Positions 22,412-34,396 of a stretch of DNA of 34,396 nucleotides are shown here, one piece after another. The notes beneath the pieces were generated by a model. That model saw nothing but the letters and a program-made list of their open reading frames with translations, was not told the DNA's origin and made no database searches. Made by a program: the position numbers and the translations under genes. This stretch comes from Parabacteroides sp. GTDB lineage: Bacteria > Bacteroidota > Bacteroidia > Bacteroidales > Tannerellaceae. The stretch is from the NCBI GenBank assembly GCA_028689545.1, contig JAQVCX010000028.1, forward strand, positions 1 through 34,396, read 5' to 3'. Within the stretch, counting starts at the first letter, position 1. Each line of letters begins with the position of its first letter.

Positions 22412-22493
22412 CCTCCGCTTTTATATAAAGGATCGCCAAGACAAGGCTGATCGTGCTTATGTAGGCTATTCTGTTCTTCTCAAATATTATTCG

Positions 22494-22501
22494 TACCTTT
22501 G
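22494..22501 (+). promoter_or_regulatory. -7 element of the U32 peptidase operon
   Basis: TACCTTTG ends 26 bases before the TTG start codon at 22528; no convincing TTG at -33. Predicted to drive the three-gene run through dprA. Confidence 0.45.
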
Positions 22502-22527
22502 CTACCGTAATATTAAAATATAGAACC

Positions 22528-23787
22528 TTGAAAGAGAAGGATTTTGAAATAATGGCGCCTGTCGGTTCCTACGAATCGTTGATGGCGGCTATACAAGGAG
22601 GGGCCGACTCTATTTATTTCGGTATCGAAGGATTGAACATGCGCTCTCGCTCGTCGAATAATTTCACGACGGAGGACTTGCGTAAGATTGTCGCTATTTG
22701 CGGGGAGCATGGCCTCAAAAGTTATCTGACGGTCAACACGGTCATTTATGGTGAGGATCTTCCGTTGATGCGGGAGATTATAGATGCCGCTAAGGAGGCG
22801 GGTGTCTCCGCCATTATCGCCGCCGATGTGGCCGCTATGAGTTACGCGAATAGTATCGGGCAGGAGGTGCACTTATCCACGCAGTTGAATATCTCGAACG
22901 CGGAGGCGTTGAAGTTTTACGCCCGCTTCGCCGATGTGGTCGTATTGGCCCGCGAATTGAACTTGAAGCAGGTACATGAGATTTACCAGGAGATCGTGGA
23001 GCAGCAGATCAAGGGGCCGAAAGGGGAGTTGATCCGTATAGAGATGTTTGCCCATGGGGCTTTGTGCATGGCCGTGTCCGGTAAGTGTTATTTGAGTTTG
23101 CATGAGATGAACGCTTCCGCCAACCGGGGGGCTTGCATGCAAATCTGCCGTCGGGCCTATACGGTGCATGATAAGGATAGCCAGATCGAGCTGGATGTGG
23201 AGAATCAGTATATCATGTCGCCGAAGGACTTGAAGACGATTCATTTCATGAATAAGATGATGGATGCCGGCGTACGTGTGTTCAAGCTGGAGGGGCGTGC
23301 CCGTGGGCCGGAGTATGTGCGTCTGGTGACCGAATGTTATAAAGAGGCGGTCAAGGCCTATTGCGAAGGTACCTTCGATGAGGAGAAGGTGGCGGTTTGG
23401 GACGAGCGTTTGCGCAGGGTCTTTAACCGTGGCTTCTGGGATGGTTACTATCTGGGACAACGGTTGGGCGAATGGAGCAGTAAATATGGATCCGGCGCTA
23501 CCCGTAAGAAAGTGTACGTGGCACGGGGCATCAAATACTTTAGCGGGATCGGTGTCGCCGAGTTTGAGATGGAGTCCGGTTCCTTGAAGGTGGGCGATGA
23601 GATCTTGGTAACGGGCCCCACGACCGGAGCCGTCATGCAGACCGTGGATGAGATCCGGGTAGACTTGAAGCCGGTGGAGGAGACCGTGAAAGGGGAACGC
23701 TTCTCGATAAAGATGTCCGAGAAGATCCGCCCGTCCGATCGCCTTTATAAGATGGAGAAGGTACAAATCGAAAAAGAATTACAATAA
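22528..23787 (+). CDS. U32 family peptidase-like protein (TrhP/YegQ type)
   Basis: A 419-residue U32-family protein. Despite the name, characterised relatives (TrhP/YegQ, RlhA) are needed for RNA hydroxylation, TrhP for 5-hydroxyuridine at tRNA position 34. It shows the family start M-A-P-V-G-S-Y-E-S-L-M-A-A-I-Q-G-G-A, the F-x-H-G-A-L-C-M-A-V-S-G-K-C-Y-L-S core, and N-R-G-A-C-M-Q-I-C-R-R, whose cysteines may bind an Fe-S cluster. The start is TTG at 22528; the first in-frame ATG (22552) would cut eight residues before the conserved M-A-P-V. The thioesterase ATG overlaps its stop codon region directly. Confidence 0.85.
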   Translation: MKEKDFEIMAPVGSYESLMAAIQGGADSIYFGIEGLNMRSRSSNNFTTEDLRKIVAICGEHGLKSYLTVNTVIYGEDLPLMREIIDAAKEAGVSAIIAADVAAMSYANSIGQEVHLSTQLNISNAEALKFYARFADVVVLARELNLKQVHEIYQEIVEQQIKGPKGELIRIEMFAHGALCMAVSGKCYLSLHEMNASANRGACMQICRRAYTVHDKDSQIELDVENQYIMSPKDLKTIHFMNKMMDAGVRVFKLEGRARGPEYVRLVTECYKEAVKAYCEGTFDEEKVAVWDERLRRVFNRGFWDGYYLGQRLGEWSSKYGSGATRKKVYVARGIKYFSGIGVAEFEMESGSLKVGDEILVTGPTTGAVMQTVDEIRVDLKPVEETVKGERFSIKMSEKIRPSDRLYKMEKVQIEKELQ

Positions 23788-24200
23788 TGAAGGAATATAT
23801 CTTTAAGCTGACAGATAAGGTACGCGATTACGAGTGCGATTTGCAAGGCGTGGTGAATAACTCCAACTACCAGCATTACATGGAGCATACCCGGCATGAG
23901 TTTTTGGAATCGTTGGGCGAGAACTTCGGTGCCATGCATGAGAAGGGGATCGATGCCTTCGTGTCTCGTGTGGATATCCAGTTCAAGAACTCCTTGCGAA
24001 GCGGCGATCGGTACACTTCTTGCCTGAATGTATCTAAGAAAGGGGTGAAACTGGTGTTCGAGCAAGACGTTTACCGCGAATCCGATGGGGCGCTGGCCAC
24101 TAAGGGAATCGTGGAATCTGTTGTCGTGGAGAATGGCAAATTAACAAGAGGAGAATATTTCGACGAGCTACTGAAGCGAATAGAATCAAAACAAGTATAA
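23787..24200 (+). CDS. hotdog-fold acyl-CoA thioesterase
   Basis: A 137-residue single hotdog domain of the 4-hydroxybenzoyl-CoA thioesterase/YbgC group, hydrolysing acyl-CoA thioesters. The N-terminal motif Y-E-C-D-L-Q-G-V-V-N-N-S-N-Y-Q-H-Y-M-E has the catalytic Asp and the V-V-N-N-x-x-Y signature. Its start overlaps the last base of the U32 gene, and dprA begins at the very next base after its stop, so all three are probably co-translated. The substrate is unknown. Confidence 0.85.
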   Translation: MKEYIFKLTDKVRDYECDLQGVVNNSNYQHYMEHTRHEFLESLGENFGAMHEKGIDAFVSRVDIQFKNSLRSGDRYTSCLNVSKKGVKLVFEQDVYRESDGALATKGIVESVVVENGKLTRGEYFDELLKRIESKQV

Positions 24201-25319
24201 ATGACAGACAAACAGATTTACCAAATTGGCCTTACTATGATAAATGGGGTGGGAGATATCCTGGCCCGCCATCTTCTGGAAGCGTTGGGGGATGCGGAGG
24301 CCGTGTTTACGGAAAAGCGCCAAGCGCTAGAGAAGATACCGGGTATCGGCGATACGATTATCGCCGAGATCAAGCAAGCGGATGTGCTCTTACGGGCAGA
24401 GAAAGAGCTTGCTTTTGTCCAAAAGAACGGTATCTCTACCTATTTCTTGAACGATACGAATTATCCGGAGCGTCTACGGGAATGCCCAGACGCTCCGGTT
24501 TTATTTTATTTCAAGGGGAACGCCGATCTAAACGCCGCTCATATTATCAGCGTTGTGGGTACTCGCAGGGCATCCGCTTATGGGCAGGAGGTGACCGAGC
24601 GTTTATTGCGGGATTTGTCCGAGCGTTTCCCGGATCTATTGGTCGTTAGCGGACTTGCGTATGGCATCGATGTTTGCGCGCATCGGAACGCGTTGAAGAA
24701 TGATTTGCCTACCGTGGGCGTATTGGCGCATGGCTTGGATCGTATCTATCCTCCGGTGCATCGCGCTACGGCGGTCGAGATGTTGGAGCGGGGAGGTTTG
24801 CTGACCGACTTCCCGAGCGGTACGAATCCGGATCGGCCGAACTTTATCCGGCGAAACCGAATCGTAGCCGGTCTAGCGGATACCACGATCGTTATTGAAT
24901 CGGCCGAGAAAGGAGGTTCTTTGATCACGGCGGATATCGCTTTCTCGTATGGCCGGGATGTTTATGCCTTTCCGGGCCGGGTTACGGATATCAACTCTAC
25001 GGGATGCAACAACTTGATCCGGCAGAATAAAGGAGGCTTGATCACTTGCGCTGACGATTTAATCATGGCGATGCGTTGGGATGTCGCTCAAAAGGCGGAC
25101 GTGTTACCGGTCCAAACCCAATTATTGTTTCCGGAGAATGAGGAGAGCGAACGGATCTTGTCGTTCTTGGCGGCGCGAAAAGAATCTCATATCAATGAAT
25201 TGTCCGTAGCCTTGAATCTTCCGGTACATCAATTATCTTCTCTGCTTTTTGAGTTGGAATTGGATGGAAAGATAAAATCGATGCCGGGAAGCATCTATAA
25301 ACGAACGAAACCCCTATAA
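24201..25319 (+). CDS. dprA: DNA processing protein DprA
   Basis: DprA loads RecA on incoming single-stranded DNA during natural transformation and is also kept in non-competent bacteria. Layout: an N-terminal HhH segment (I-P-G-I-G-D-T-I-I-A, near residue 48); a Rossmann-like core with V-V-G-T-R-R-A-S-A-Y-G, S-G-L-A-Y-G-I-D-V-C-A-H and R-R-N-R-I-V-A-G-L-A; and a C-terminal winged-helix (DML1-like) domain from about residue 310. Length 372 is normal. It is the last ordinary core gene before the AT-rich accessory region. Confidence 0.96.
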   Translation: MTDKQIYQIGLTMINGVGDILARHLLEALGDAEAVFTEKRQALEKIPGIGDTIIAEIKQADVLLRAEKELAFVQKNGISTYFLNDTNYPERLRECPDAPVLFYFKGNADLNAAHIISVVGTRRASAYGQEVTERLLRDLSERFPDLLVVSGLAYGIDVCAHRNALKNDLPTVGVLAHGLDRIYPPVHRATAVEMLERGGLLTDFPSGTNPDRPNFIRRNRIVAGLADTTIVIESAEKGGSLITADIAFSYGRDVYAFPGRVTDINSTGCNNLIRQNKGGLITCADDLIMAMRWDVAQKADVLPVQTQLLFPENEESERILSFLAARKESHINELSVALNLPVHQLSSLLFELELDGKIKSMPGSIYKRTKPL

Positions 25320-25397
25320 ACAATTAAAGCCTGTCTCACGACAAGCCCTAACCAAACTTTGTTAACCTTAAATCTAATACTATTATGAAAAAACCAC
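25318..25397 (-). ncRNA. small RNA locus, copy B
   Basis: About 80 nt on the minus strand, from a promoter at 25402-25432 to a hairpin with arms 25329-25335 and 25340-25346 and loop GUGA, then UUUAAUUGUUU. It shares with copy A the blocks CATCG-x-G-TTTTTTCATA, TTAGAT-x-TAAGGTTAACAA and the GUGA-capped stem. One stem pair is G-U only in minus-strand RNA, which fixes the transcribed strand. It ends in the stop codon of dprA, so the two transcripts converge. Confidence 0.65.
25329..25346 (-). terminator. hairpin ending small RNA copy B
   Basis: Seven-base stem with GUGA loop and a short, interrupted U-run; moderate strength. It may also serve as the 3' end of dprA mRNA read from the other strand. 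Confidence 0.5.
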
Positions 25398-25401
25398 GAT
25401 G

Positions 25402-25432
25402 CAAAGATAAGCCTGTAAAGCCCATTTGTCAA
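25402..25432 (-). promoter_or_regulatory. promoter of small RNA copy B
   Basis: Minus strand: TTGAC (25428-25432), 18 bases, TATCTTTG (25402-25409), a full consensus match with the same spacing as copy A. Confidence 0.72.
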
Positions 25433-25570
25433 GAGTTTTGAGTATAACTTGTGTTAAACAACATACCTGTTCAATATAAAAAATGTTTCTGAATTTGAAA
25501 CTATACAGAATATGCGCAAAATCTTCTAAAATTAACAGTTGGGATATATCAAACCTAATAATTCAAGAAT

Positions 25571-25806
25571 ATGGACACCAAAGTAATTAAAGTAGGAACA
25601 TCACTCGGATTGATCATACCTAGACTTATGGCTAAGGATTATGATCTCCAATTGAGGTTGAGCTGAAAGATGATATTATTGTCATTAAAAAGAAAAAGTC
25701 AGCTCGGGATGGTTGGGGAGAAGCGTTTGCCCAATATGCGAAGGAAGGCGAAGACAGACAACTTTTACCTGATCATCTGGATTCTGAAGTAGAAACGCTA
25801 TTATGA
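25571..25806 (+). pseudogene. decayed mazE-like antitoxin gene
   Basis: ATG at 25571 opens M-D-T-K-V-I-K-V-G-T-S-L-G-L-I-I-P-R-L, the AbrB/MazE swapped-hairpin DNA-binding start, then runs into TGA after 31 codons. The rest of the antitoxin (E-V-E-L-K-D-D-I-I-V-I-K-K-K-K, then an acidic toxin-binding tail) is in another frame and ends at 25806. The break sits at CAATTGAGG. Complete homologues have about four more residues (typically L-G-D-P) there, so a short deletion, perhaps between CAATTG repeats, caused the frameshift. The stop overlaps the toxin start as ATGA, the usual TA layout. Confidence 0.75.
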
Positions 25807-25913
25807 ATAGATACGAATTGTATGCTGTCAATCTCGATCCTACAATCGGAGCCGAGATTAAAAAAACAAGACCCTGTGTGATCATCTCTCCTAATGAAAT
25901 GAATAAGTATTAG
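25803..25913 (+). pseudogene. truncated mazF-like toxin gene
   Basis: 36 codons: M-N-R-Y-E-L-Y-A-V-N-L-D-P-T-I-G-A-E-I-K-K-T-R-P-C-V-I-I-S-P-N-E-M-N-K-Y then TAG. This is the N-terminal third of a MazF/PemK mRNA interferase, including the conserved L-D-P-T-x-G-x-E-x-x-K-x-R-P. Intact toxins have about 110 residues. The sequence after the stop does not continue the family in any frame I could follow. The pair is therefore a dead toxin-antitoxin module. Confidence 0.78.
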
Positions 25914-26077
25914 ATTTGAATATATGTAGGAAGTCTTTTATACTAAAATTCCACCTTTAGAACGAATTATTTAGGAATAAGCGACTTATGAACCTGTCTT
26001 GAAATTAGGTAATGATTTGGCGATGGTCATGATTTCTGTGGTTTGCTGTGCCTTGCTGTCAAACAATTCTTTATATG

Positions 26078-26108
26078 CAAAATTAGTTATTTCTTTAGAA
26101 ATGAGCAA
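26078..26108 (-). promoter_or_regulatory. orphan promoter-like site in decayed region
   Basis: Minus strand TTG (26106-26108), 20 bases, TAATTTTG (26078-26085), a full match to the phylum consensus. Nothing longer than a 14-codon ORF follows before decayed sequence, so it may be the leftover promoter of a lost gene. Confidence 0.4.
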
Positions 26109-26134
26109 AATCTCAAACTTAAAATAATAAAAAA

Positions 26135-26171
26135 AGAATAGCTTACCACTTATTGTAAACTTGGCTATTCT
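26135..26171 (-). terminator. intrinsic terminator, minus strand
   Basis: Arms AGAATAGC (26135-26142) and GCTATTCT (26164-26171); on the minus strand the stem is followed by a run of Us (complement of the A-run at 26128-26135). It lies 12 bases after the stop of the small minus-strand ORF at 26183. Confidence 0.6.
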
Positions 26172-26182
26172 CTTTTTATCGT

Positions 26183-26416
26183 TTATCGGATTTTATCTAA
26201 GCTCCATATTTCTTTTGTAGTATTAACTATTTTATAAAAGCACCTTTCTATACAACTTTTATTCCAAATTGGATTTTCTTTGTCTGTAACAAATTCTATT
26301 ATCTTCTTCTGTTGATTCCGTAAATTGTCTTTGCCATAAAACTGTAACTTTTGAGAAAATAGGCGGTTTGGAGGAAAAAAAGTCCTACCGCAGAAGATGC
26401 TTACTTCATACTTCAC
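26183..26416 (-). CDS. small unrecognised protein, possibly a gene fragment
   Basis: Up to 77 codons from a GTG at 26416. The second half (from about F-Y-G-K-D-N-L-R-N-Q-Q-K-K-I-I-E-F-V) looks like genuine coding sequence with W-N-K-S-C-I-E-R-C-F-Y, and a terminator follows, so it may be the 3' end of a longer lost gene. The first half overlaps, on the other strand, a plus-strand run (P-T-A-E-D-A-Y-F-I-L-H-E-L-L-R-S-K-D-L, ending at 26475) that also looks coding. I cannot assign either. Confidence 0.35.
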   Translation of the reverse strand: MKYEVSIFCGRTFFPPNRLFSQKLQFYGKDNLRNQQKKIIEFVTDKENPIWNKSCIERCFYKIVNTTKEIWSLDKIR

Positions 26417-26465
26417 GAGTTGTTAAGGTCGAAAGATTTGGATATAAAGAAGACTGAACGAAAAT

Positions 26466-26499
26466 CAGTGCTTTGACACAACTTGATAGCTAAGCACTG
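26466..26499 (-). terminator. hairpin at the end of the helicase operon
   Basis: Arms CAGTGCTT (26466-26473) and AAGCACTG (26492-26499), directly after the helicase stop, with ATTTT following on the minus strand. Plausible weak terminator of the TerB/ATPase/helicase operon. Confidence 0.5.
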
Positions 26500-26500
26500 G

Positions 26501-28654
26501 TTACTTATCGCAGATATTGAGTAGAATATTTCTCGCTAAATCAATATCCAAATATGTACAAGAATATTCAATATCTATCAATTTATCAGATAATAGACTA
26601 TCGTATTTTTGAAATATCTTACATTGACGCGGAAATATTGATACAATCTCAACAATATCAGTCTTAATCTCAGCCTTTTGTTTTAATAACTTGACATCAT
26701 CTGGAGTCAAGTTTAAAATATAAAAACTGCCATAATCACATGGTTTGTTTAGGTGATATTGTGCAAAAAGGGCAATAGTTCTGTTGATTTTTGTTCCAGC
26801 CCATGTGAAGAAGTAGCTTTCATTACCATATTGCAAGAACGATGTATTCTCTATATTGTTGTGTTGAAAAAATAAACGGCTCCGTTCCAAATGCTCTTTA
26901 GCCCCAGTGCGTTCATCAAGATATGGATATATGGCATCAGTCTGGTATATTTCACGCATCTTTTCTACAATAATGCGATCTACCTCGACTCCATTTCCAC
27001 CAAACATTGCCATTCCACCATTTTTGATACATGATACATAAACCTTGGCTGTTGATTCGTCCCAACTTTCAACGAGCCATCGCTTTCCTGAAAGAATGAT
27101 AACTTTACCGACTGGCGGTTTAAATTGTATCATTCCAATGCGTTTGGAGCTATCCTTGTCTATGACGGTTAAATCAATTGGAGAAACAAACGCAGTATAG
27201 AAATCAGGAGCTTTCAATATTTTCTCTCCCAATTTACCTACGACTATCTGACCTGTGGCTAATTGTGAAATTACATTTTTCTTGCCGAGAGCTTTTAGCA
27301 CTTCAAGAAATAGTTCGGAAGTGACATTCTTGAATGCACCATTTTGACAAAGCATTATCCAACCATCCTTTGGATAAAATCCACCAAATTGAGCTATTAC
27401 AGCTAATATTTGCTGAATGAGAGTCGAGAAATGATACTTGCTTATAGAAGGAGACTCATATTGATGCTCACGCATTAATTCAATGATAGCTATATTCTGT
27501 ACAAGACTACTTCTCAAATCATGCAATAGTCCGTCTTCTTTTTTCTCTATTGAGAAGACTCGTAAAATTGATGGTTCGTTTCGCCTTCCGGAGCGTCCTA
27601 ACCTCTGTCTCAGTCCAGAAACAGAAATAGCTGTGCCTATCTGAGCGATTGACTTAACTTTGCCAATATCAACCCCCAATTCCAATGTTGATGTACAAAA
27701 TGCCGTTATCGGATGTTCGCCCCTTTGCAATTCCTGTTCTACTGCCTCCCTTTCCATCTTTGATATACTGCCGTGATGCACTCTGAATTCGTTGGGGACT
27801 CCCTTTTCTTCGCACATATCCGATAACTGTACGGCATACTCTTCAACATCACCACGATTATTTGTGAATATGAGATTATTGCTTCCCCTCAAATTATTAT
27901 ATATATCCTGAGATATAGAGGTAGTTATATTTGTATCTTTTGATGCAACATATTCTTTAACGAGTAACTTGATTTCATGATTGCTTTCTCCTTGCGGTGG
28001 TATAGCACATGGCATTGCTCCGTCATTACGAAGAAAATATTTCACAATATCATAATCCGAAAAAGTCGCGCTCATCGCTATGCGAGGTATATGACGATGT
28101 GTAATTTGCTCTATACGAGACAAAAGAGATTGCAATTGTTTACCTCGTTCCGTACCTATAAATGAATGCAATTCATCTATGACAACATATCGTAGCGATG
28201 AAAAGGCAGCCAATACAAAACGCTCTCGGTTTATCAAAAAAGATTCAAGTGATTCAGGGGTAATTATGACTATACCGTTTGGATTCTTTAGTGACCGACT
28301 TTTTCTGGTAGCATCTACATCACCATGCCAAGGGATTACATCCATTCCCATTCCAGCAGTCATTTCTGACAAGCGGCGATATTGGTCATTGATTAGAGCC
28401 TTTAACGGACTTACATACAGCACTTGATAGCCAAAAGATTTGTCACTTTGCAAAATAGATGTCAAAATAGGCAAAAAAGCAGCTTCGGTTTTTCCTCCTG
28501 CGGTAGAGGCGCTTATAATAACATCGCTATTACCTTCAAGTACAATGGGTATAGCATTCTCTTGAATGTCTTTCAGAGAAATCCAACCTTGCCGCCAAAT
28601 CCATTGGCGAACACGTTCGTCCAGAAGGTTAAAAGAAATAGAATCCCTTGCCAT
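26501..28654 (-). CDS. Lhr/BrxHI-like superfamily 2 helicase
   Basis: A 717-residue DEAD/DEAH-type helicase: motif I A-S-T-A-G-G-K-T (residues 49-56), Ia S-P-L-K-A-L, motif II D-E-L-H (160-163), motif III S-A-T (195-197), and motif VI Q-R-L-G-R-S-G-R-R-N-E (350-359). The D-E-L-H box and G-R-S-G-R-R end place it with Lhr-like helicases; size and its ATPase neighbour match BrxHI of type 2 BREX. A C-terminal region of about 340 residues is unassigned and may bind nucleic acid. It starts 6 bases after the ATPase gene, as last member of the operon. Probable role: DNA or RNA unwinding in an anti-phage or stress system (inference). Confidence 0.88.
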   Translation of the reverse strand: MARDSISFNLLDERVRQWIWRQGWISLKDIQENAIPIVLEGNSDVIISASTAGGKTEAAFLPILTSILQSDKSFGYQVLYVSPLKALINDQYRRLSEMTAGMGMDVIPWHGDVDATRKSRSLKNPNGIVIITPESLESFLINRERFVLAAFSSLRYVVIDELHSFIGTERGKQLQSLLSRIEQITHRHIPRIAMSATFSDYDIVKYFLRNDGAMPCAIPPQGESNHEIKLLVKEYVASKDTNITTSISQDIYNNLRGSNNLIFTNNRGDVEEYAVQLSDMCEEKGVPNEFRVHHGSISKMEREAVEQELQRGEHPITAFCTSTLELGVDIGKVKSIAQIGTAISVSGLRQRLGRSGRRNEPSILRVFSIEKKEDGLLHDLRSSLVQNIAIIELMREHQYESPSISKYHFSTLIQQILAVIAQFGGFYPKDGWIMLCQNGAFKNVTSELFLEVLKALGKKNVISQLATGQIVVGKLGEKILKAPDFYTAFVSPIDLTVIDKDSSKRIGMIQFKPPVGKVIILSGKRWLVESWDESTAKVYVSCIKNGGMAMFGGNGVEVDRIIVEKMREIYQTDAIYPYLDERTGAKEHLERSRLFFQHNNIENTSFLQYGNESYFFTWAGTKINRTIALFAQYHLNKPCDYGSFYILNLTPDDVKLLKQKAEIKTDIVEIVSIFPRQCKIFQKYDSLLSDKLIDIEYSCTYLDIDLARNILLNICDK

Positions 28655-28660
28655 AAAATG

Positions 28661-29983
28661 CTATAATTTGAATGAGGCAAAAGCATCGTCATCTGTAATA
28701 CTTTGCATCTCGCTCTGCTGTGAAATAATTTCTCCGATTTTGGTCTGCTCAACATCTCGTGCAACTTGGATTTTTTCTATCATATCCGACCATTTCAAGC
28801 TAGGATATTGCTCAAGCATCGACAATAAGTCCAAGAATCCTTTAATCGTATTACGAGGTGTACGAAAATAACTGTCACCTATTTTATTGGCGCAATGATT
28901 CAGATATGCCAGCAAAGCATCATCTGGAACTAAATATTTATTCTCATCACCACCAGCAAAAACATTACGCAAATTCATCAATAGTAAGTATAATTCTTCT
29001 TTCGTGAGATTAGCTAGACGCAATACGGTTGAATTGTAATCTGCCAATCCGAATTTTTTGGAAAAACTGTTTTCTGCCAATCGAGATTTCAACGCCTCGT
29101 AGCTATACAAACCTCTATTACCATCTGTCAAAAATTCAGGTGTTCCAGACATAATAAATCCAATATGCGATAATGTACCTTGAAGAGTATTGTTCAATAT
29201 ATTCAGGATTTCCTCATAATTGGCTTTACGAGAAACGCTATTGGAAATTTTATATAGATTTACCATTTCATCCATACAAACTAATAAGCCACTATATCCT
29301 GCTTTTTGCACCAAAATAGAGTAAAGTTTCAGTGTATCGAATAATGAGGCATCGCTAATAAATTCACGTACACCGAGATCACGCAAACTATCAGTTTTTG
29401 TTGTATATTCCGCTTTTAACCAACGAAGAACGCGGTCTTTTAATATATCATCACCTGATTCATACGCCGTCCAGTATTTATTGACTACCTGTGCAAATGT
29501 ATATCCACCAGAATATTCATTTAGATCACTCAACTGCTCATATATGACCGATGCAACATCTTGCTTTCGCTGTTCCGCCTTTTGCATAGCTGACGATATG
29601 AACTTCTCAAGAATATTTGGTAGTGCATTTCCATCCTGTTTGGTGCGAGTAGATATTGATGAGATCAACTCGGATAATAAAATTCGCGCCTGACCGTCCG
29701 TTCCATGCAATCGCTTAGTCGGTGACAAATCGGCATTCATTGTTACCAATCCCTTTTGTAAAGCGATACTTCTGACTAGTGAAAGAAAGAATGTTTTGCC
29801 AGAACCGTATTCTCCTATGACAAAACGAAATGATGTACCACCTTCTGAGATAGTGGAGACATCATTGATAAATGACTTTAATTCTTCACTTCGACCTACT
29901 TGAATATGTTGCAATCCAAGTCGCGGTACAACACCGCTCCTTAAAGATTGGATAATAATTTCGCGTTCCTTTGTTTTTATCAT
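28661..29983 (-). CDS. BrxD-like P-loop ATPase (DUF2791 type)
   Basis: A 440-residue ATP-binding protein. Walker A is G-E-Y-G-S-G-K-T at residues 57-64, preceded by V-G-R-S-E-E-L; Walker B is L-L-V-C-M-D-E-M at 233-240. The opening (I-I-Q-S-L-R-S-G-V-V-P-R-L-G-L-Q-H-I-Q-V-G-R) is typical of the BREX ATP-binding BrxD family, an ORC/Cdc6-like AAA group. Its ATG overlaps the TerB_C gene stop by 4 bases and the helicase follows after 6, so stoichiometric complex formation with both is likely. No BREX methyltransferase or PglZ is present in the window. Confidence 0.85.
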   Translation of the reverse strand: MIKTKEREIIIQSLRSGVVPRLGLQHIQVGRSEELKSFINDVSTISEGGTSFRFVIGEYGSGKTFFLSLVRSIALQKGLVTMNADLSPTKRLHGTDGQARILLSELISSISTRTKQDGNALPNILEKFISSAMQKAEQRKQDVASVIYEQLSDLNEYSGGYTFAQVVNKYWTAYESGDDILKDRVLRWLKAEYTTKTDSLRDLGVREFISDASLFDTLKLYSILVQKAGYSGLLVCMDEMVNLYKISNSVSRKANYEEILNILNNTLQGTLSHIGFIMSGTPEFLTDGNRGLYSYEALKSRLAENSFSKKFGLADYNSTVLRLANLTKEELYLLLMNLRNVFAGGDENKYLVPDDALLAYLNHCANKIGDSYFRTPRNTIKGFLDLLSMLEQYPSLKWSDMIEKIQVARDVEQTKIGEIISQQSEMQSITDDDAFASFKL

Positions 29984-31101
29984 AATAATACATTTTTGTA
30001 ATCTAGTGTAACATATATATTCTCACCATCATCTTCTACAACTGCATCATCAACTTTTTCGTATGCATAATCATTGATTTGCTCTAATACCGCCCCCAAC
30101 ATCAAACCTCGTTTTTTGCATATATCCTCAATTTCAACACGTTTCCAAGTCTCTTGGGTAAAGAGTAGTTTCAGCATATCCATCCACATATTGGACATGT
30201 TGTCGGCTGCTACATCTTTAGATTCAGCAGCCTCTTCTTCTGCAAATATATCTGAAAGTATTTCTCGTGCAACTTTAGTTTGTTGTTCGAGAGTACGAAG
30301 TTTTTTCTGATTTATGGTAACATGTGATGCAACATATTGTTCTGCCGATGAGGATTTGCCATTTATAGTAAACTCGGTAGCATCCGACTTTTTCTCTATC
30401 ACTGCAAAGCCATTGCTATCGGTCAGTAATCTGTGAATCTGAGAGTGAATATTTTCGACATCAATTCCCAATAATGGTAATACTTTTTTTAGGTCATCAA
30501 TGCGTTTGGGGTGAATATCACCGTTGATGCAAGCAAGTCTGATTAGAGCATTTCCCATTAAGGTTCTTTGTTCGCTCGTCAACGTCCCAATGGTGTTTTG
30601 TACTTGCTTGTCAATCGCTTGTTTCTTGAGTGAAAAACGCCATCTGATAGTTGCCATCAAATGAAGATGATTTCCGACAGTGTTATTGTATGACTGCAAG
30701 TATTGTTCAACAAAGATGAAATCTTCATCTGTAACTTTGTCTGCATTCACAATTCGCGATGCTAACTTTATAAACAAATCTGACCTTTCATATTTTGTAG
30801 TTAATTTAGCCGAGTGACATTCCTCGTTTTTATATATCACACAAATGTCGCCAAAGTTAAAACGCTTTTTATCAATTTCATAATCTGGCACAATATCGAA
30901 TCCTATCCGCCTCAGGCCACCAATAATAGCATCCGCATACTCTTTATGAATGCTTTTTTCATCTTTACGTTCATACTCCCATAATGCAAGAATCCAATCA
31001 ATTGATTTGACCAAAAACTTGTCTGACTGCATCTCGTTTTCAATATGAGCAATCAGCGTTTGAATCTTTGATATATCTCTAACATTCACTTCAGTGGGCA
31101 A
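29980..31101 (-). CDS. TerB/TerB_C protein, downstream half of a split gene
   Basis: A 373-residue frame ending in a TerB_C domain: from about residue 305, W-M-D-M-L-K-L-L-F-T-Q-E-T-W-K-R-V-E-I-E-D-I-C, then G-L-M-L-G-A-V-L-E-Q-I-N-D-Y-A-Y-E. A TerB-like helical domain with C-I-N-G-D-I-H-P-K-R-I-D-D-L lies near residues 200-250. The given start is TTG (31101), but the frame is open upstream to the TGA at 31252-31254 that ends the TerB_N frame, with coding-like sequence between (S-I-S-D-P-W-I-I-R-T-V-V-E-N-C). So this is the second half of a formerly 1095-codon protein. It overlaps the ATPase gene by 4 bases. TerB-type domains are linked to metal- and stress-sensing membrane complexes. Confidence 0.82.
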   Translation of the reverse strand: MPTEVNVRDISKIQTLIAHIENEMQSDKFLVKSIDWILALWEYERKDEKSIHKEYADAIIGGLRRIGFDIVPDYEIDKKRFNFGDICVIYKNEECHSAKLTTKYERSDLFIKLASRIVNADKVTDEDFIFVEQYLQSYNNTVGNHLHLMATIRWRFSLKKQAIDKQVQNTIGTLTSEQRTLMGNALIRLACINGDIHPKRIDDLKKVLPLLGIDVENIHSQIHRLLTDSNGFAVIEKKSDATEFTINGKSSSAEQYVASHVTINQKKLRTLEQQTKVAREILSDIFAEEEAAESKDVAADNMSNMWMDMLKLLFTQETWKRVEIEDICKKRGLMLGAVLEQINDYAYEKVDDAVVEDDGENIYVTLDYKNVLL

Positions 31102-31251
31102 TAACGTTATTGCCGTAATGGTTTCCTTACCACCCGAACGTTCCTTGATTCGATTGTATTGTCTAAATTTAGACTCGACACTCCAATAACAATTCTCAAC
31201 GACAGTACGAATTATCCAAGGATCTGATATCGAATTGATTTGATAAGCAAA

Positions 31252-33267
31252 TCATATTCTTTCGGGGTAAAAACAATAGTAGTCGTGCTGATAATCAATA
31301 TACTGATATCGTGTTGATAATTCAAACCTTAGATCTTTATTTTTATATAGTTCATTGAAACGATTGTTGAAAATTTGTTTGGCAACTGAAGCATACTGAG
31401 ATGGAACAAGTCGTTCAAAATTATATATAGCACGAGCTATGTCAAATACATCATCTGATATTATTTTATTGTGAGTTGTAATTTTTTGCGCTATATAGAA
31501 ATCTTGATATACGCGACTATTCTTCAATACATTTTTAGCATCAAATTTATCTACTTCTGCACTAAAGAATTTAACGATAGCACTTCCTATAAAATCACAT
31601 AAATGTTGAGCAATTAATCCAGCTTTATCTTTATTTGATTGTACATCTAAAGTTTTGTACAACTGTATGGCATCAACTAATATATCTCTCCGTTCCGATC
31701 TATTGGTTTGTGGGTCAATGAACATTCGCATCTCACACCCATACAGATAAAACAATAGAATCTCCACTGATACCTCAGATGTGTCTTTTTGATGAGATAA
31801 CCACATTAAATATTCATATCGCCATGCAGGAGACATTCCTTTATACGAACAAAAAATATTTTTGGATGTTTCTGATTCATTAGCTGGCAAATTCGGATTC
31901 ACTACTGAGCCATAAATATATGCACTCTCATATCCTGAATAGAATCTGTTTTCCTCAATGATTTTGTTCGGCAGTAGATAGCATTCGCCGATGTAAAAAT
32001 TGCCGCGTGTCAGTTTGATTCCTTGCACCTCTACAACTTCGTTTGACTTAACCCATCGGCATAATTGTCCACGAGATTTATCATAGAATTGTAATTCACG
32101 TTCGGCCTCTTCTTGATTGCCAGCAATGATAGTTTTTGACAAAGTATTATTAATATATCCTGCGATTACAGGATAATTTTCTGCCAATGCTTCAAGTTGA
32201 CGTTTTAGCAGCTCAGAATTTTTGTGTCTCTTGTAATCATCAGCAATATCGAACATTAAAACAAATGCATAGTTTGAATTATCCTTGATGTCAAGGAAAT
32301 CACCTTCAAAAAATGATGCCTTGAAATGATAATAAAATTGTTCCTGTTCTGGATTCGCATTCTGTAAATCAGCAACAGAGTACACATACATATGTTTCCA
32401 ATAAGGCACTTCGTCCATCATACCAGCATTGGAACCAATGCCATTGATTTCATGATTTACCCTAGTTAGCTCTTTGGATACCTCCTCTTTATCAATTAAT
32501 TTTCTTTCAACGGCACTTTTTTGACTATGGAAATGCTCGCCATAATCCTCATTATCATCTTCATCATTTATATTTTCCCGACTAATTGCATTCTGTAATA
32601 GTCCATACATAATTTGCGATATAGTGTACTGACGGTCTATTTCTAATTTTGCATATTCAGTCATACGTTTTTCTAATAACAAGTTCCAATATTTGTGTGC
32701 TAAATCTGGTAATTCGTAGCGATGTATTGCATTTTTTATGAAATTAATCTCTTCGTCAAGATAACCCATTTGATGCATTATATTGGCTTCTTCTCGTAAT
32801 TTGAGGTTTTCTACCCACTTCCTCTTTTGTAAAGTTTTATTCTCTATAATTTTTGCTTTTTCCATAAGAGGGATCTGAACGTTTTCAGTTTTATTTGAAT
32901 GCAAATGTTCTTCCACAATATTACTTTCATCAGAGTTCGCTGACACCCCACCTCGGACAATCGCATTCTTCAATAGTCCGGATACAATTTGTGATATAAT
33001 GTATTGTTGATCTATTTCTTTATCAGACTCTCCATTATGACAGAGAACATCTACTTCTATGTAACTGTTCGTAATATTATTACTCTGTAGATCTGCTGGT
33101 TGTACATCAATAGATGCGCTTTTATTCAATTTGTCATTATTGGATTGATTTACTGATTCATTATTCGATATGGATTTCCCTTTTGTCAATAATACGATTA
33201 CAGTCAATATAACCACAATAATTAGGACATATGTTCCCAGCCAATATATCAGAAGTATTATAGCCAA
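31252..33267 (-). CDS. membrane-anchored TerB_N protein, upstream half of a split gene
   Basis: A 671-residue frame. Residues 1-29 form one hydrophobic helix (anchor), followed by a low-complexity Asn/Ser-rich linker. Two copies of a repeat follow (E84-E145 and E209-E267). A conserved segment then begins P-Y-W-K-H-M-Y-V-Y-S (near 288), and the TerB_N domain spans about 410-545 with R-G-N-F-Y-I-G-E-C-Y-L-L, V-V-N-P-N-L-P and L-L-F-Y-L-Y-G-C-E-M-R-M-F-I-D. The start is a TTG; no ATG or GTG lies in frame upstream before a stop. The frame ends at a TGA after which the same frame continues into TerB_C. If the stop is real, two polypeptides or no functional product result. Confidence 0.82.
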   Translation of the reverse strand: MAIILLIYWLGTYVLIIVVILTVIVLLTKGKSISNNESVNQSNNDKLNKSASIDVQPADLQSNNITNSYIEVDVLCHNGESDKEIDQQYIISQIVSGLLKNAIVRGGVSANSDESNIVEEHLHSNKTENVQIPLMEKAKIIENKTLQKRKWVENLKLREEANIMHQMGYLDEEINFIKNAIHRYELPDLAHKYWNLLLEKRMTEYAKLEIDRQYTISQIMYGLLQNAISRENINDEDDNEDYGEHFHSQKSAVERKLIDKEEVSKELTRVNHEINGIGSNAGMMDEVPYWKHMYVYSVADLQNANPEQEQFYYHFKASFFEGDFLDIKDNSNYAFVLMFDIADDYKRHKNSELLKRQLEALAENYPVIAGYINNTLSKTIIAGNQEEAERELQFYDKSRGQLCRWVKSNEVVEVQGIKLTRGNFYIGECYLLPNKIIEENRFYSGYESAYIYGSVVNPNLPANESETSKNIFCSYKGMSPAWRYEYLMWLSHQKDTSEVSVEILLFYLYGCEMRMFIDPQTNRSERRDILVDAIQLYKTLDVQSNKDKAGLIAQHLCDFIGSAIVKFFSAEVDKFDAKNVLKNSRVYQDFYIAQKITTHNKIISDDVFDIARAIYNFERLVPSQYASVAKQIFNNRFNELYKNKDLRFELSTRYQYIDYQHDYYCFYPERI

Positions 33268-33320
33268 TATGTAATAGATAATTTTCTGTATTAGTCTTAT
33301 TTACGTATAATCTTAGTTTT

Positions 33321-34265
33321 TTACTCTACAAACAAATCGTCAAGTTTGACTTCACTTTGCACGTTGCCGCTATACATATTCTTCTTAACACCGTATGTCG
33401 TTACAAATGTCTGATGTAGAGCTTTACGTGTTTTCGCTGCCGAGCGAAAACTTTCTGCCCGTTCACGTAAGTGTTCATCATATTGTTTTGTGATCTCAAA
33501 CTCACTTTGTGAGAATTTCATTTCGCAAAGATTGATGGTCTGATCTCGGCGATCAATCAATAAATCAATCTGGGCACCATCACCTTTCCATGCACAGACA
33601 TCGCTTTGTACACCACTTATACCCAACTTTTGTTTGATTTGGCGGATATGATGCAGGCATAACTGTTCAAAGGAGTATCCGCTCCATGCTCTACGTGAGG
33701 GAGAATCTATCATATTTTGCCAATGATTCTCATCCTGTCCGCGATACCCTTTGACATAGCGCAAATGAAACAGCGTAAACAAATCCGTCAGTTGGTATAT
33801 CGTTCCACGCTCAATCTTGCCGAATGCAGAGTATTGACGGATAAAATCGCAATCGCTCAAGTTTCGCAGAGCTTTTGTCAAAGCCCCACCATCTTCGATT
33901 TTTGTTGCAGCCATAATTTCATTCCGAGTCATTCCTGTTACTTTGTTTGCCAGAGTCTCGATAATCTGTCTATGCAAAGTAGCTTCATTGAACAGTGAGC
34001 GGAATAAGAAATCGTATTCCCGCACCAACGGTGCATTCTGTATGAAAAAGAGGTTGTCGACATTCTGGGTAAAGCTCAAATTGCGTTCAAGCATTTGCAG
34101 ATAAAGTGGCGTACCTCCAAGAACCATATAACACTCCGCTATTTGATAACGATTCCAGTTAATGCCACGTGAAAGAAGATATTGTTCCGTTTCATGTAAT
34201 GTAAAAGGAGCAAGATATATACTGCGCGTGGTCCGATTGTATAGTCCTCCTTTGTCGGAAAGCAC
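33321..34265 (-). pseudogene. 5'-truncated ATPase with DUF234-type nuclease domain
   Basis: 314 codons from a GTG at 34265. The sequence starts inside a known family of archaeal-type ATPases (V-L-S-D-K-G-G-L-Y-N-R-T-T-R-S-I-Y-L-A-P-F), just after the sensor strand. The Walker A and B part, normally about 150 residues before this, is missing; the frame closes at a TGA eight codons upstream. The winged-helix region and the C-terminal PD-(D/E)XK-like domain (Q-I-D-L-L-I-D with L-C-E-M-K-F-S) are intact. A promoter-like site precedes it at 34322-34352. Without nucleotide binding it is probably dead, though a free nuclease domain is conceivable. Confidence 0.72.
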
Positions 34266-34321
34266 ATTTTCAGGGAGTGTAATTCAAACTCTGTCTGGTT
34301 TCTATTTCTTTTAAATCTCTG

Positions 34322-34352
34322 CAAATATAATTTTTTCTTTTTGGATTTACAA
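34322..34352 (-). promoter_or_regulatory. promoter upstream of the truncated ATPase
   Basis: Minus strand TTG (34350-34352), 20 bases, TATATTTG (34322-34329). No TAnnTTTG box was seen in the 53 bases before the TerB_N gene, so this could drive the ATPase remnant and the TerB operon together. Confidence 0.5.
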
Positions 34353-34396
34353 ATGCTTCTTAAGGCAGTTGTCGGATGTGTGCAAGGGCGGCGAGG

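What the first reader, a model, noticed from the sequence alone, without database searches (positions are those of the whole stretch)
26501..33267. TerB_N/TerB_C + BrxD-like ATPase + Lhr/BrxHI-like helicase operon: candidate undescribed defence or stress system
Seen: a tight minus-strand operon (4-base overlap, 6-base gap) coding a membrane-anchored TerB_N/TerB/TerB_C protein, a P-loop ATPase and an SF2 helicase, in AT-rich DNA beside a dead toxin-antitoxin pair and a truncated ATPase/nuclease gene. Known: BrxD and BrxHI occur together in type 2 BREX with PglX/Z/W/Y; TerB domains occur in stress-linked complexes. Inferred: BrxD-BrxHI here works with a membrane TerB sensor instead of the Pgl proteins and has no modification enzyme, so it would be a compact system distinct from BREX.
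Basis: partly seen in the sequence, partly recalled or inferred. Interest (0 to 1): 0.78.

Follow-up and report, generated by a model that had tools for sequence, protein, structure and literature searches.

The report
Known Shango phage-defence operon, interrupted
This is a gut-bacterium copy of Shango, a three-gene anti-phage system already described in other bacteria; here its membrane-sensor gene is cut in two by a premature stop, so the copy is probably not working, and the locus is not a new system.

Summary
The three-gene minus-strand operon is Shango (SngA TerB-domain protein, SngB ATPase, SngC helicase), published as an anti-phage system in Pseudomonas and E. coli and present in PADLOC. 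SngB and SngC match the PADLOC Shango models at 2e-168 and 4e-229, far better than BrxD and BrxHI; SngA matches in two pieces. SngA is split by one in-frame TGA at 31252-31254, between TerB_N and TerB; the rest of its ~1095-codon frame aligns in one frame to an intact 1160-residue relative. SngB and SngC are intact and conserved. The block is AT-rich and absent at the matching site of a same-genus genome; 1 of 38 genus genomes, the window's own, has SngB. A PglZ search found only a response-regulator protein elsewhere. Membrane anchoring is common in Shango: 28 of 35 SngA proteins carry an N-terminal hydrophobic segment, against 0 of 35 SngB and 0 of 31 SngC. The freshest lead lies in relatives: three Bacteroidales loci keep only membrane segment plus TerB_C of SngA, and their SngC carries a nuclease-fold-like tail.

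The parts
31252..33267 (-). sngA, 5' part (671 aa): N-terminal membrane segment, ~360-residue variable region, TerB_N; ends at an in-frame TGA (31252-31254)
   Evidence: TerB_N 6e-10; PADLOC SngA 2.7e-9; premature TGA by single-frame alignment to intact L024 SngA and '1 TGA' inside the SngA profile match
29980..31251 (-). sngA, 3' part in the same frame (open from 31251; first listed start TTG 31101): TerB core and TerB_C
28661..29983 (-). sngB: BrxC/BrxD-family AAA+ ATPase, 440 aa, intact
   Evidence: PADLOC SngB 2.3e-168 versus BrxD 2.8e-46; G60, G62, K63, D238, E239 invariant in an alignment of 14
26501..28654 (-). sngC: SF2 Lhr/BrxHI-like helicase, 717 aa, intact
   Evidence: PADLOC SngC 3.5e-229 versus BrxHI 5.3e-110; motifs kept in an alignment with five homologues; Lhr-type structures 5v9x and 7lhl score best in PDB
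33321..34265 (-). 5'-truncated ATPase/nuclease-type gene (PDC-S27, DUF234); neighbour, not part of Shango
   Evidence: PADLOC PDC-S27 5e-129 over profile 156-473 of 474; no match to it among the ORFs of L002-L032, of which only L023-L030 and L032 have long flanks
25571..25913 (+). mazEF-like toxin-antitoxin remnant, both genes broken; neighbour
   Evidence: ORFs; PemK/MazF start 1.1e-9; MazE label recalled
25546..34396 (.). AT-rich, probably acquired block downstream of dprA, to the end of the contig
   Evidence: GC profile; 93.5% identity to a same-genus genome stops at 25545

Best explanation
The locus is a Shango anti-phage operon (sngA-sngB-sngC) of the long-SngA Bacteroidales type, acquired horizontally downstream of dprA and now probably inactive, because sngA carries one premature stop between TerB_N and TerB. 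How an intact copy most likely works (inferred): SngA sits in the inner membrane by its N-terminal helix or helices and carries the infection-sensing TerB_N/TerB modules; its C-terminal TerB_C module, the one part kept in every intact SngA examined, docks on or regulates the SngB AAA+ ring; SngB then loads or fires the SngC Lhr-like helicase on incoming or replicating phage DNA and disrupts it, without nuclease or methylase. Shown here: gene identity, order, the stop, conservation, and the membrane segment as a hydropathy prediction. Inferred: sensing, docking, helicase loading and loss of function. Identity as Shango alone I hold at 0.97; the confidence below is for identity plus impaired state; the mechanism itself I hold at about 0.4.
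For: PADLOC SngA/B/C matches. BrxD equivalog cut-off missed, 155.9 of 350 bits. Conserved gene order in 20 of 20 other phylum loci. Published anti-phage activity of the same gene set. One TGA in an otherwise open ~1095-codon frame, against 72 and 115 stops in the two other frames, and TGA ends four other long ORFs of the window outside the operon. SngB and SngC conserved: pN/pS 0.07 and 0.15 against L024. N-terminal hydrophobic segment in 28 of 35 SngA, 0 of 35 SngB, 0 of 31 SngC. TerB_C region found in every SngA with a complete 3' end that was given to the local profile or to Pfam. TerB fold. BrxD proposed as possible loader of BrxHI in type 2 BREX (PMC12839542, passages).
Against: The stop could be an assembly or sequencing error: the contig comes from a 200-contig genome at 90.5% completeness, and reads cannot be inspected. 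SngA might work as two polypeptides or by read-through. The listings (30 of 34 papers shown; 20 of 35 shown) held no evident mechanism paper on Shango, so sensing and loading rest on analogy. Seven of 35 SngA show no N-terminal membrane segment, and in L061 the TerB_N/TerB_C gene lies on the strand opposite to SngB.
Confidence: 0.68

Rival explanations
1. The operon is an ordinary functional Shango: the stop is an assembly error, or the two SngA parts work as separate proteins.
For: Only one stop in ~1095 codons; sngB and sngC intact; three relatives keep just membrane segment plus TerB_C with intact SngB and SngC, so part of SngA can apparently be dispensed with.
Against: SngA is also broken or shortened, by other lesions, in the close relatives L023 and L025 and in L077, which fits repeated loss; the downstream part here has no membrane segment and no ATG start.
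Confidence: 0.28
2. A new compact BREX-like system distinct from all described ones: BrxD-BrxHI working with a membrane TerB sensor.
For: Domain content as described; SngB and SngC are relatives of BrxD and BrxHI.
Against: The same three-gene system is published as Shango and has its own PADLOC models, which win by hundreds of bits for SngB and SngC.
Confidence: 0.02
3. A piece of a type 2 BREX locus whose Pgl genes lie outside the window.
For: BrxD/BrxHI-like pair; the contig ends about 130 bases past the last gene.
Against: BrxD equivalog cut-off not reached; a TerB protein precedes the pair, as in the relatives; the only PglZ hit in the genome is a response-regulator plus PglZ protein on another contig, beside integrase, receptor, transporter and pyruvate kinase genes. 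PglX and PglW were not searched for.
Confidence: 0.02

Closest known systems
Shango (SngABC), P. aeruginosa and E. coli
   Same: Same three genes in the same order: TerB_N...TerB_C protein, BrxC/D-family ATPase, Lhr/BrxHI-like helicase; a copy on an E. coli plasmid (L057, SngB 55% identical) also has an N-terminal hydrophobic segment on SngA
   Different: Window SngA is of a long type (intact relatives 1159-1162 aa versus 769 aa in L057) with an extra N-terminal region, and is interrupted by a TGA
Type 2 BREX (BrxD-BrxHI pair)
   Same: Homologous ATPase and helicase as a tightly linked pair
   Different: No PglZ near; BrxD and BrxHI models score hundreds of bits lower than the Shango models
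Dpd and Druantia helicases (DpdJ, DruE)
   Same: SngC groups with them and BrxHI in a defence helicase clade (PMC12278908, passages)
   Different: Partner genes differ (recalled); bit scores 103 and 63 versus 761
TerB-domain stress/tellurite proteins
   Same: TerB fold in the intact relative (2ou3, 2h5n)
   Different: Here TerB lies in a membrane-linked multidomain protein beside an ATPase and a helicase; nothing here speaks for tellurite

Membership tests
Shango | SngA: TerB_N ... TerB_C protein upstream | tested here: met
   SngA 2.7e-9 and 1e-28 on the two parts; interrupted by TGA
Shango | SngB ATPase | tested here: met
   2.3e-168
Shango | SngC helicase | tested here: met
   3.5e-229
Shango | Operon order A-B-C with overlaps or short gaps | tested here: met
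   same order in relatives; exception L061
Shango | Protects against phages | not testable with these tools
   Published for PA14 Shango; this allele untested and probably broken
Type 2 BREX | BrxD at equivalog level | tested here: not met
   155.9 bits against cut-off 350
Type 2 BREX | PglZ in the locus | tested here: not met
   The single genome-wide hit is on contig C14 with a response-regulator domain; genome 90.5% complete and the contig ends close to the operon
Type 2 BREX | PglX methylase and PglW | not tested
   Not searched for in the genome
Dpd | DpdJ/DpdF at equivalog level | tested here: not met
   NCBIfam DpdJ 25.7 of 800 bits, DpdF 43.9 of 550

The most novel reading that the evidence does not exclude
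In the relatives, not in the window, there is a 'mini-Shango' that I have not seen described: in three Bacteroidales loci (L028, L029, L030) SngA is cut down to a membrane segment, a charged linker and TerB_C (182-194 aa), SngB is ordinary, and SngC has a ~130-residue tail whose predicted fold resembles PD-(D/E)XK/RAP-type domains but lacks the usual acidic-x-lysine strand motif. This would make membrane-tethered TerB_C the irreducible docking unit of Shango and TerB_N/TerB an exchangeable sensor, which fits the other N-terminal modules seen (a peptidoglycan-binding domain in L064, Sel1 repeats in L040) and the repeated damage to SngA.
Probability: 0.4. Interest if true: 0.5.

Novelty: already known. 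Interest (0 to 1): 0.2.

Why it matters
It removes a false candidate for a new defence system and places the locus in Shango, whose mechanism looks open. The comparison gives testable points about Shango that I did not see stated in the passages I read: SngA is usually membrane-anchored, TerB_C is its invariant part, the sensor part is exchangeable, SngA is seen damaged in several copies, and a reduced natural variant exists in three loci.

Tried and rejected
A BREX locus in the same genome: a PglZ search found only a response-regulator plus PglZ protein; that this is PorX is recalled. A conserved partnership with the PDC-S27 gene: no match to P0005 among the ORFs of L002-L032 (L002-L022 are only about 4 kb long). 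Phage-borne Shango: no match in 50,697 phage records at E 1e-20; 7 loci in IMG/VR contigs. Recoding of TGA: TGA ends four other long ORFs of the window. DusB is 58-61% identical to the seven Alistipes, Rikenellaceae and Bacteroidales/Bacteroidia genomes and 32-37% to the three others among the 10 searched, and the order samples of G000 and of the Bacteroidales genome G401 contain the same SngB places, so the order Bacteroidales is inferred. Fold search with the whole SngA model: Foldseek gave no match at E 0.001 and large unrelated helical proteins among the top rows; only the TerB core stood out (2h5n E 0.057, probability 1.00); other parts are barely tested there. No solved structure matched the SngB alignment at E 0.001. 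Pfam found nothing in the two SngC tails searched, L029 and L030. Literature searches on the TerB/BrxD combination and on TerB_N/TerB_C gave nothing on mechanism in what was listed: no paper, 20 of 71 listed, 15 of 39 listed, three papers; these were read as listings, except the papers whose passages are cited. That sngA breaks more often than sngB cannot be judged, since the loci were collected by an SngB match.

Full report
What is there. The window is a whole contig (G000:C122, 34,396 bases) of a 200-contig genome. GC is 45-61% per kilobase up to 25 kb and 32-39% beyond, and blastn to the best same-genus genome (93.5% identity over 22475-25545) ends at 25545; that genome (G1101) has no SngB match. 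So 25546-34396 is probably an acquired block behind dprA. It holds a mazEF-like remnant, a minus-strand operon, and a 5'-truncated PDC-S27 gene.

Identity of the operon. PADLOC models give SngB 2.3e-168 (BrxD 2.8e-46) and SngC 3.5e-229 (BrxHI 5.3e-110); the two ORFs upstream match SngA at 2.7e-9 and 1e-28. NCBIfam BrxD is far below its cut-off (155.9 of 350 bits). This is Shango. Johnson et al. 2023 (PMC10250203; passages seen) describe it as TerB-like protein, ATPase and helicase, cloned from PA14 into PAO1, with a 10-100-fold plating reduction for many but not all phages, and say it had recently been identified in E. coli; that earlier paper I know only through this citation and by recall. 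SngC's grouping with BrxHI, DruE and DpdJ is in PMC12278908 (two passages). PMC12839542 (passages) treats BrxD-BrxHI as a linked dyad with BrxD as possible helicase loader; its text had no hit for Shango or TerB.

The break. tblastn of the intact 1160-aa SngA of L024 covers window 33000-29983 in one frame at 58% identity with a single stop inside; the SngA profile search of the genome also reports '1 TGA'. The frame from 33267 to 29982 has that one stop before its end, against 72 and 115 stops in the other two frames. TGA ends four other long ORFs of the window. The lesion lies between TerB_N and the TerB core. No ATG is found at the homologous start; the first listed start is TTG at 33267. 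Intact copies exist in relatives (L024, L026, L027). Protein identity to L024 is 50% (SngA N part), 72% (C part), 90% (SngB) and 80% (SngC), with pN/pS 0.42, 0.22, 0.07 and 0.15; synonymous sites are near saturation. Between the intact L024 and L026 dN/dS is 0.20 for SngA and 0.08 for SngB, so SngA evolves faster even when intact.

Relatives. SngB at E <= 1e-80: 20 of 395 genomes of the phylum sample and 5 of 393 of the order sample, own genome counted in both; 4 of 295 in a second, overlapping order sample centred on G401. In the genus 1 of 38 (E <= 1e-60), the own genome. Plasmids: 681 of 72,556 records at E 1e-30, of which Klebsiella 449 and Salmonella 144. Phages: none of 50,697. Genome contigs gave 10 loci and viral contigs 7. 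In the phylum sample 20 of 20 other loci (19 genomes) have a TerB_C-bearing protein directly upstream of SngB and SngC on its other side. Against a universal order: in L061 the TerB_N/TerB_C gene lies on the opposite strand.

How it works. Shown: gene content, order, stop, conservation. Inferred: SngA as membrane-linked sensor, TerB_C as contact to SngB, SngB as loader or switch of SngC, SngC acting on phage DNA. I put the mechanism near 0.4. The window copy is probably inactive (about 0.7), unless the stop is an assembly error or a split SngA works.

Verdict. Observation confirmed; interpretation right on defence and wrong on novelty. The system is known; interest 0.2. The reduced form in three relatives is the one lead that I would follow.

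Noticed in passing
L028:7408-7992, L029:7444-7992, L030:7441-7992: SngA reduced to membrane segment plus TerB_C (182-194 aa) with intact SngB and a SngC bearing a ~130-residue tail of PD-(D/E)XK-like predicted fold without the usual motif.
   Followed up: partly
L023:4515-8004; L025:2342-3809; L077:3630-5982; L072:4066-5982: sngA broken, shortened or joined to another start by different lesions while sngB and sngC are single long ORFs.
   Followed up: partly
L064:2643-5990; L040:2192-5554: SngA with N-terminal peptidoglycan-binding domain (Azospirillum plasmid) or Sel1 repeats ahead of TerB_N.
   Followed up: no
window 25308-25536: 229-base stretch at and behind the end of dprA that recurs about 11 kb further on at 80% identity in the same-genus genome (L099:14514-14742); possibly a small mobile or intergenic repeat.
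   Followed up: no
window 33321-34265: PDC-S27 candidate defence gene lacking its first ~155 profile positions, with ~130 bases left to the contig end.
   Followed up: partly
L024:2462-4462: AAA/STAND-like ATPase with a weak, below-cut-off HEPN_Swt1 match directly upstream of Shango in an Alistipes genome.
   Followed up: no
L061:2421-4729: TerB_N/TerB_C protein encoded on the strand opposite to SngB, so the SngA-SngB operon order is not universal.
   Followed up: no
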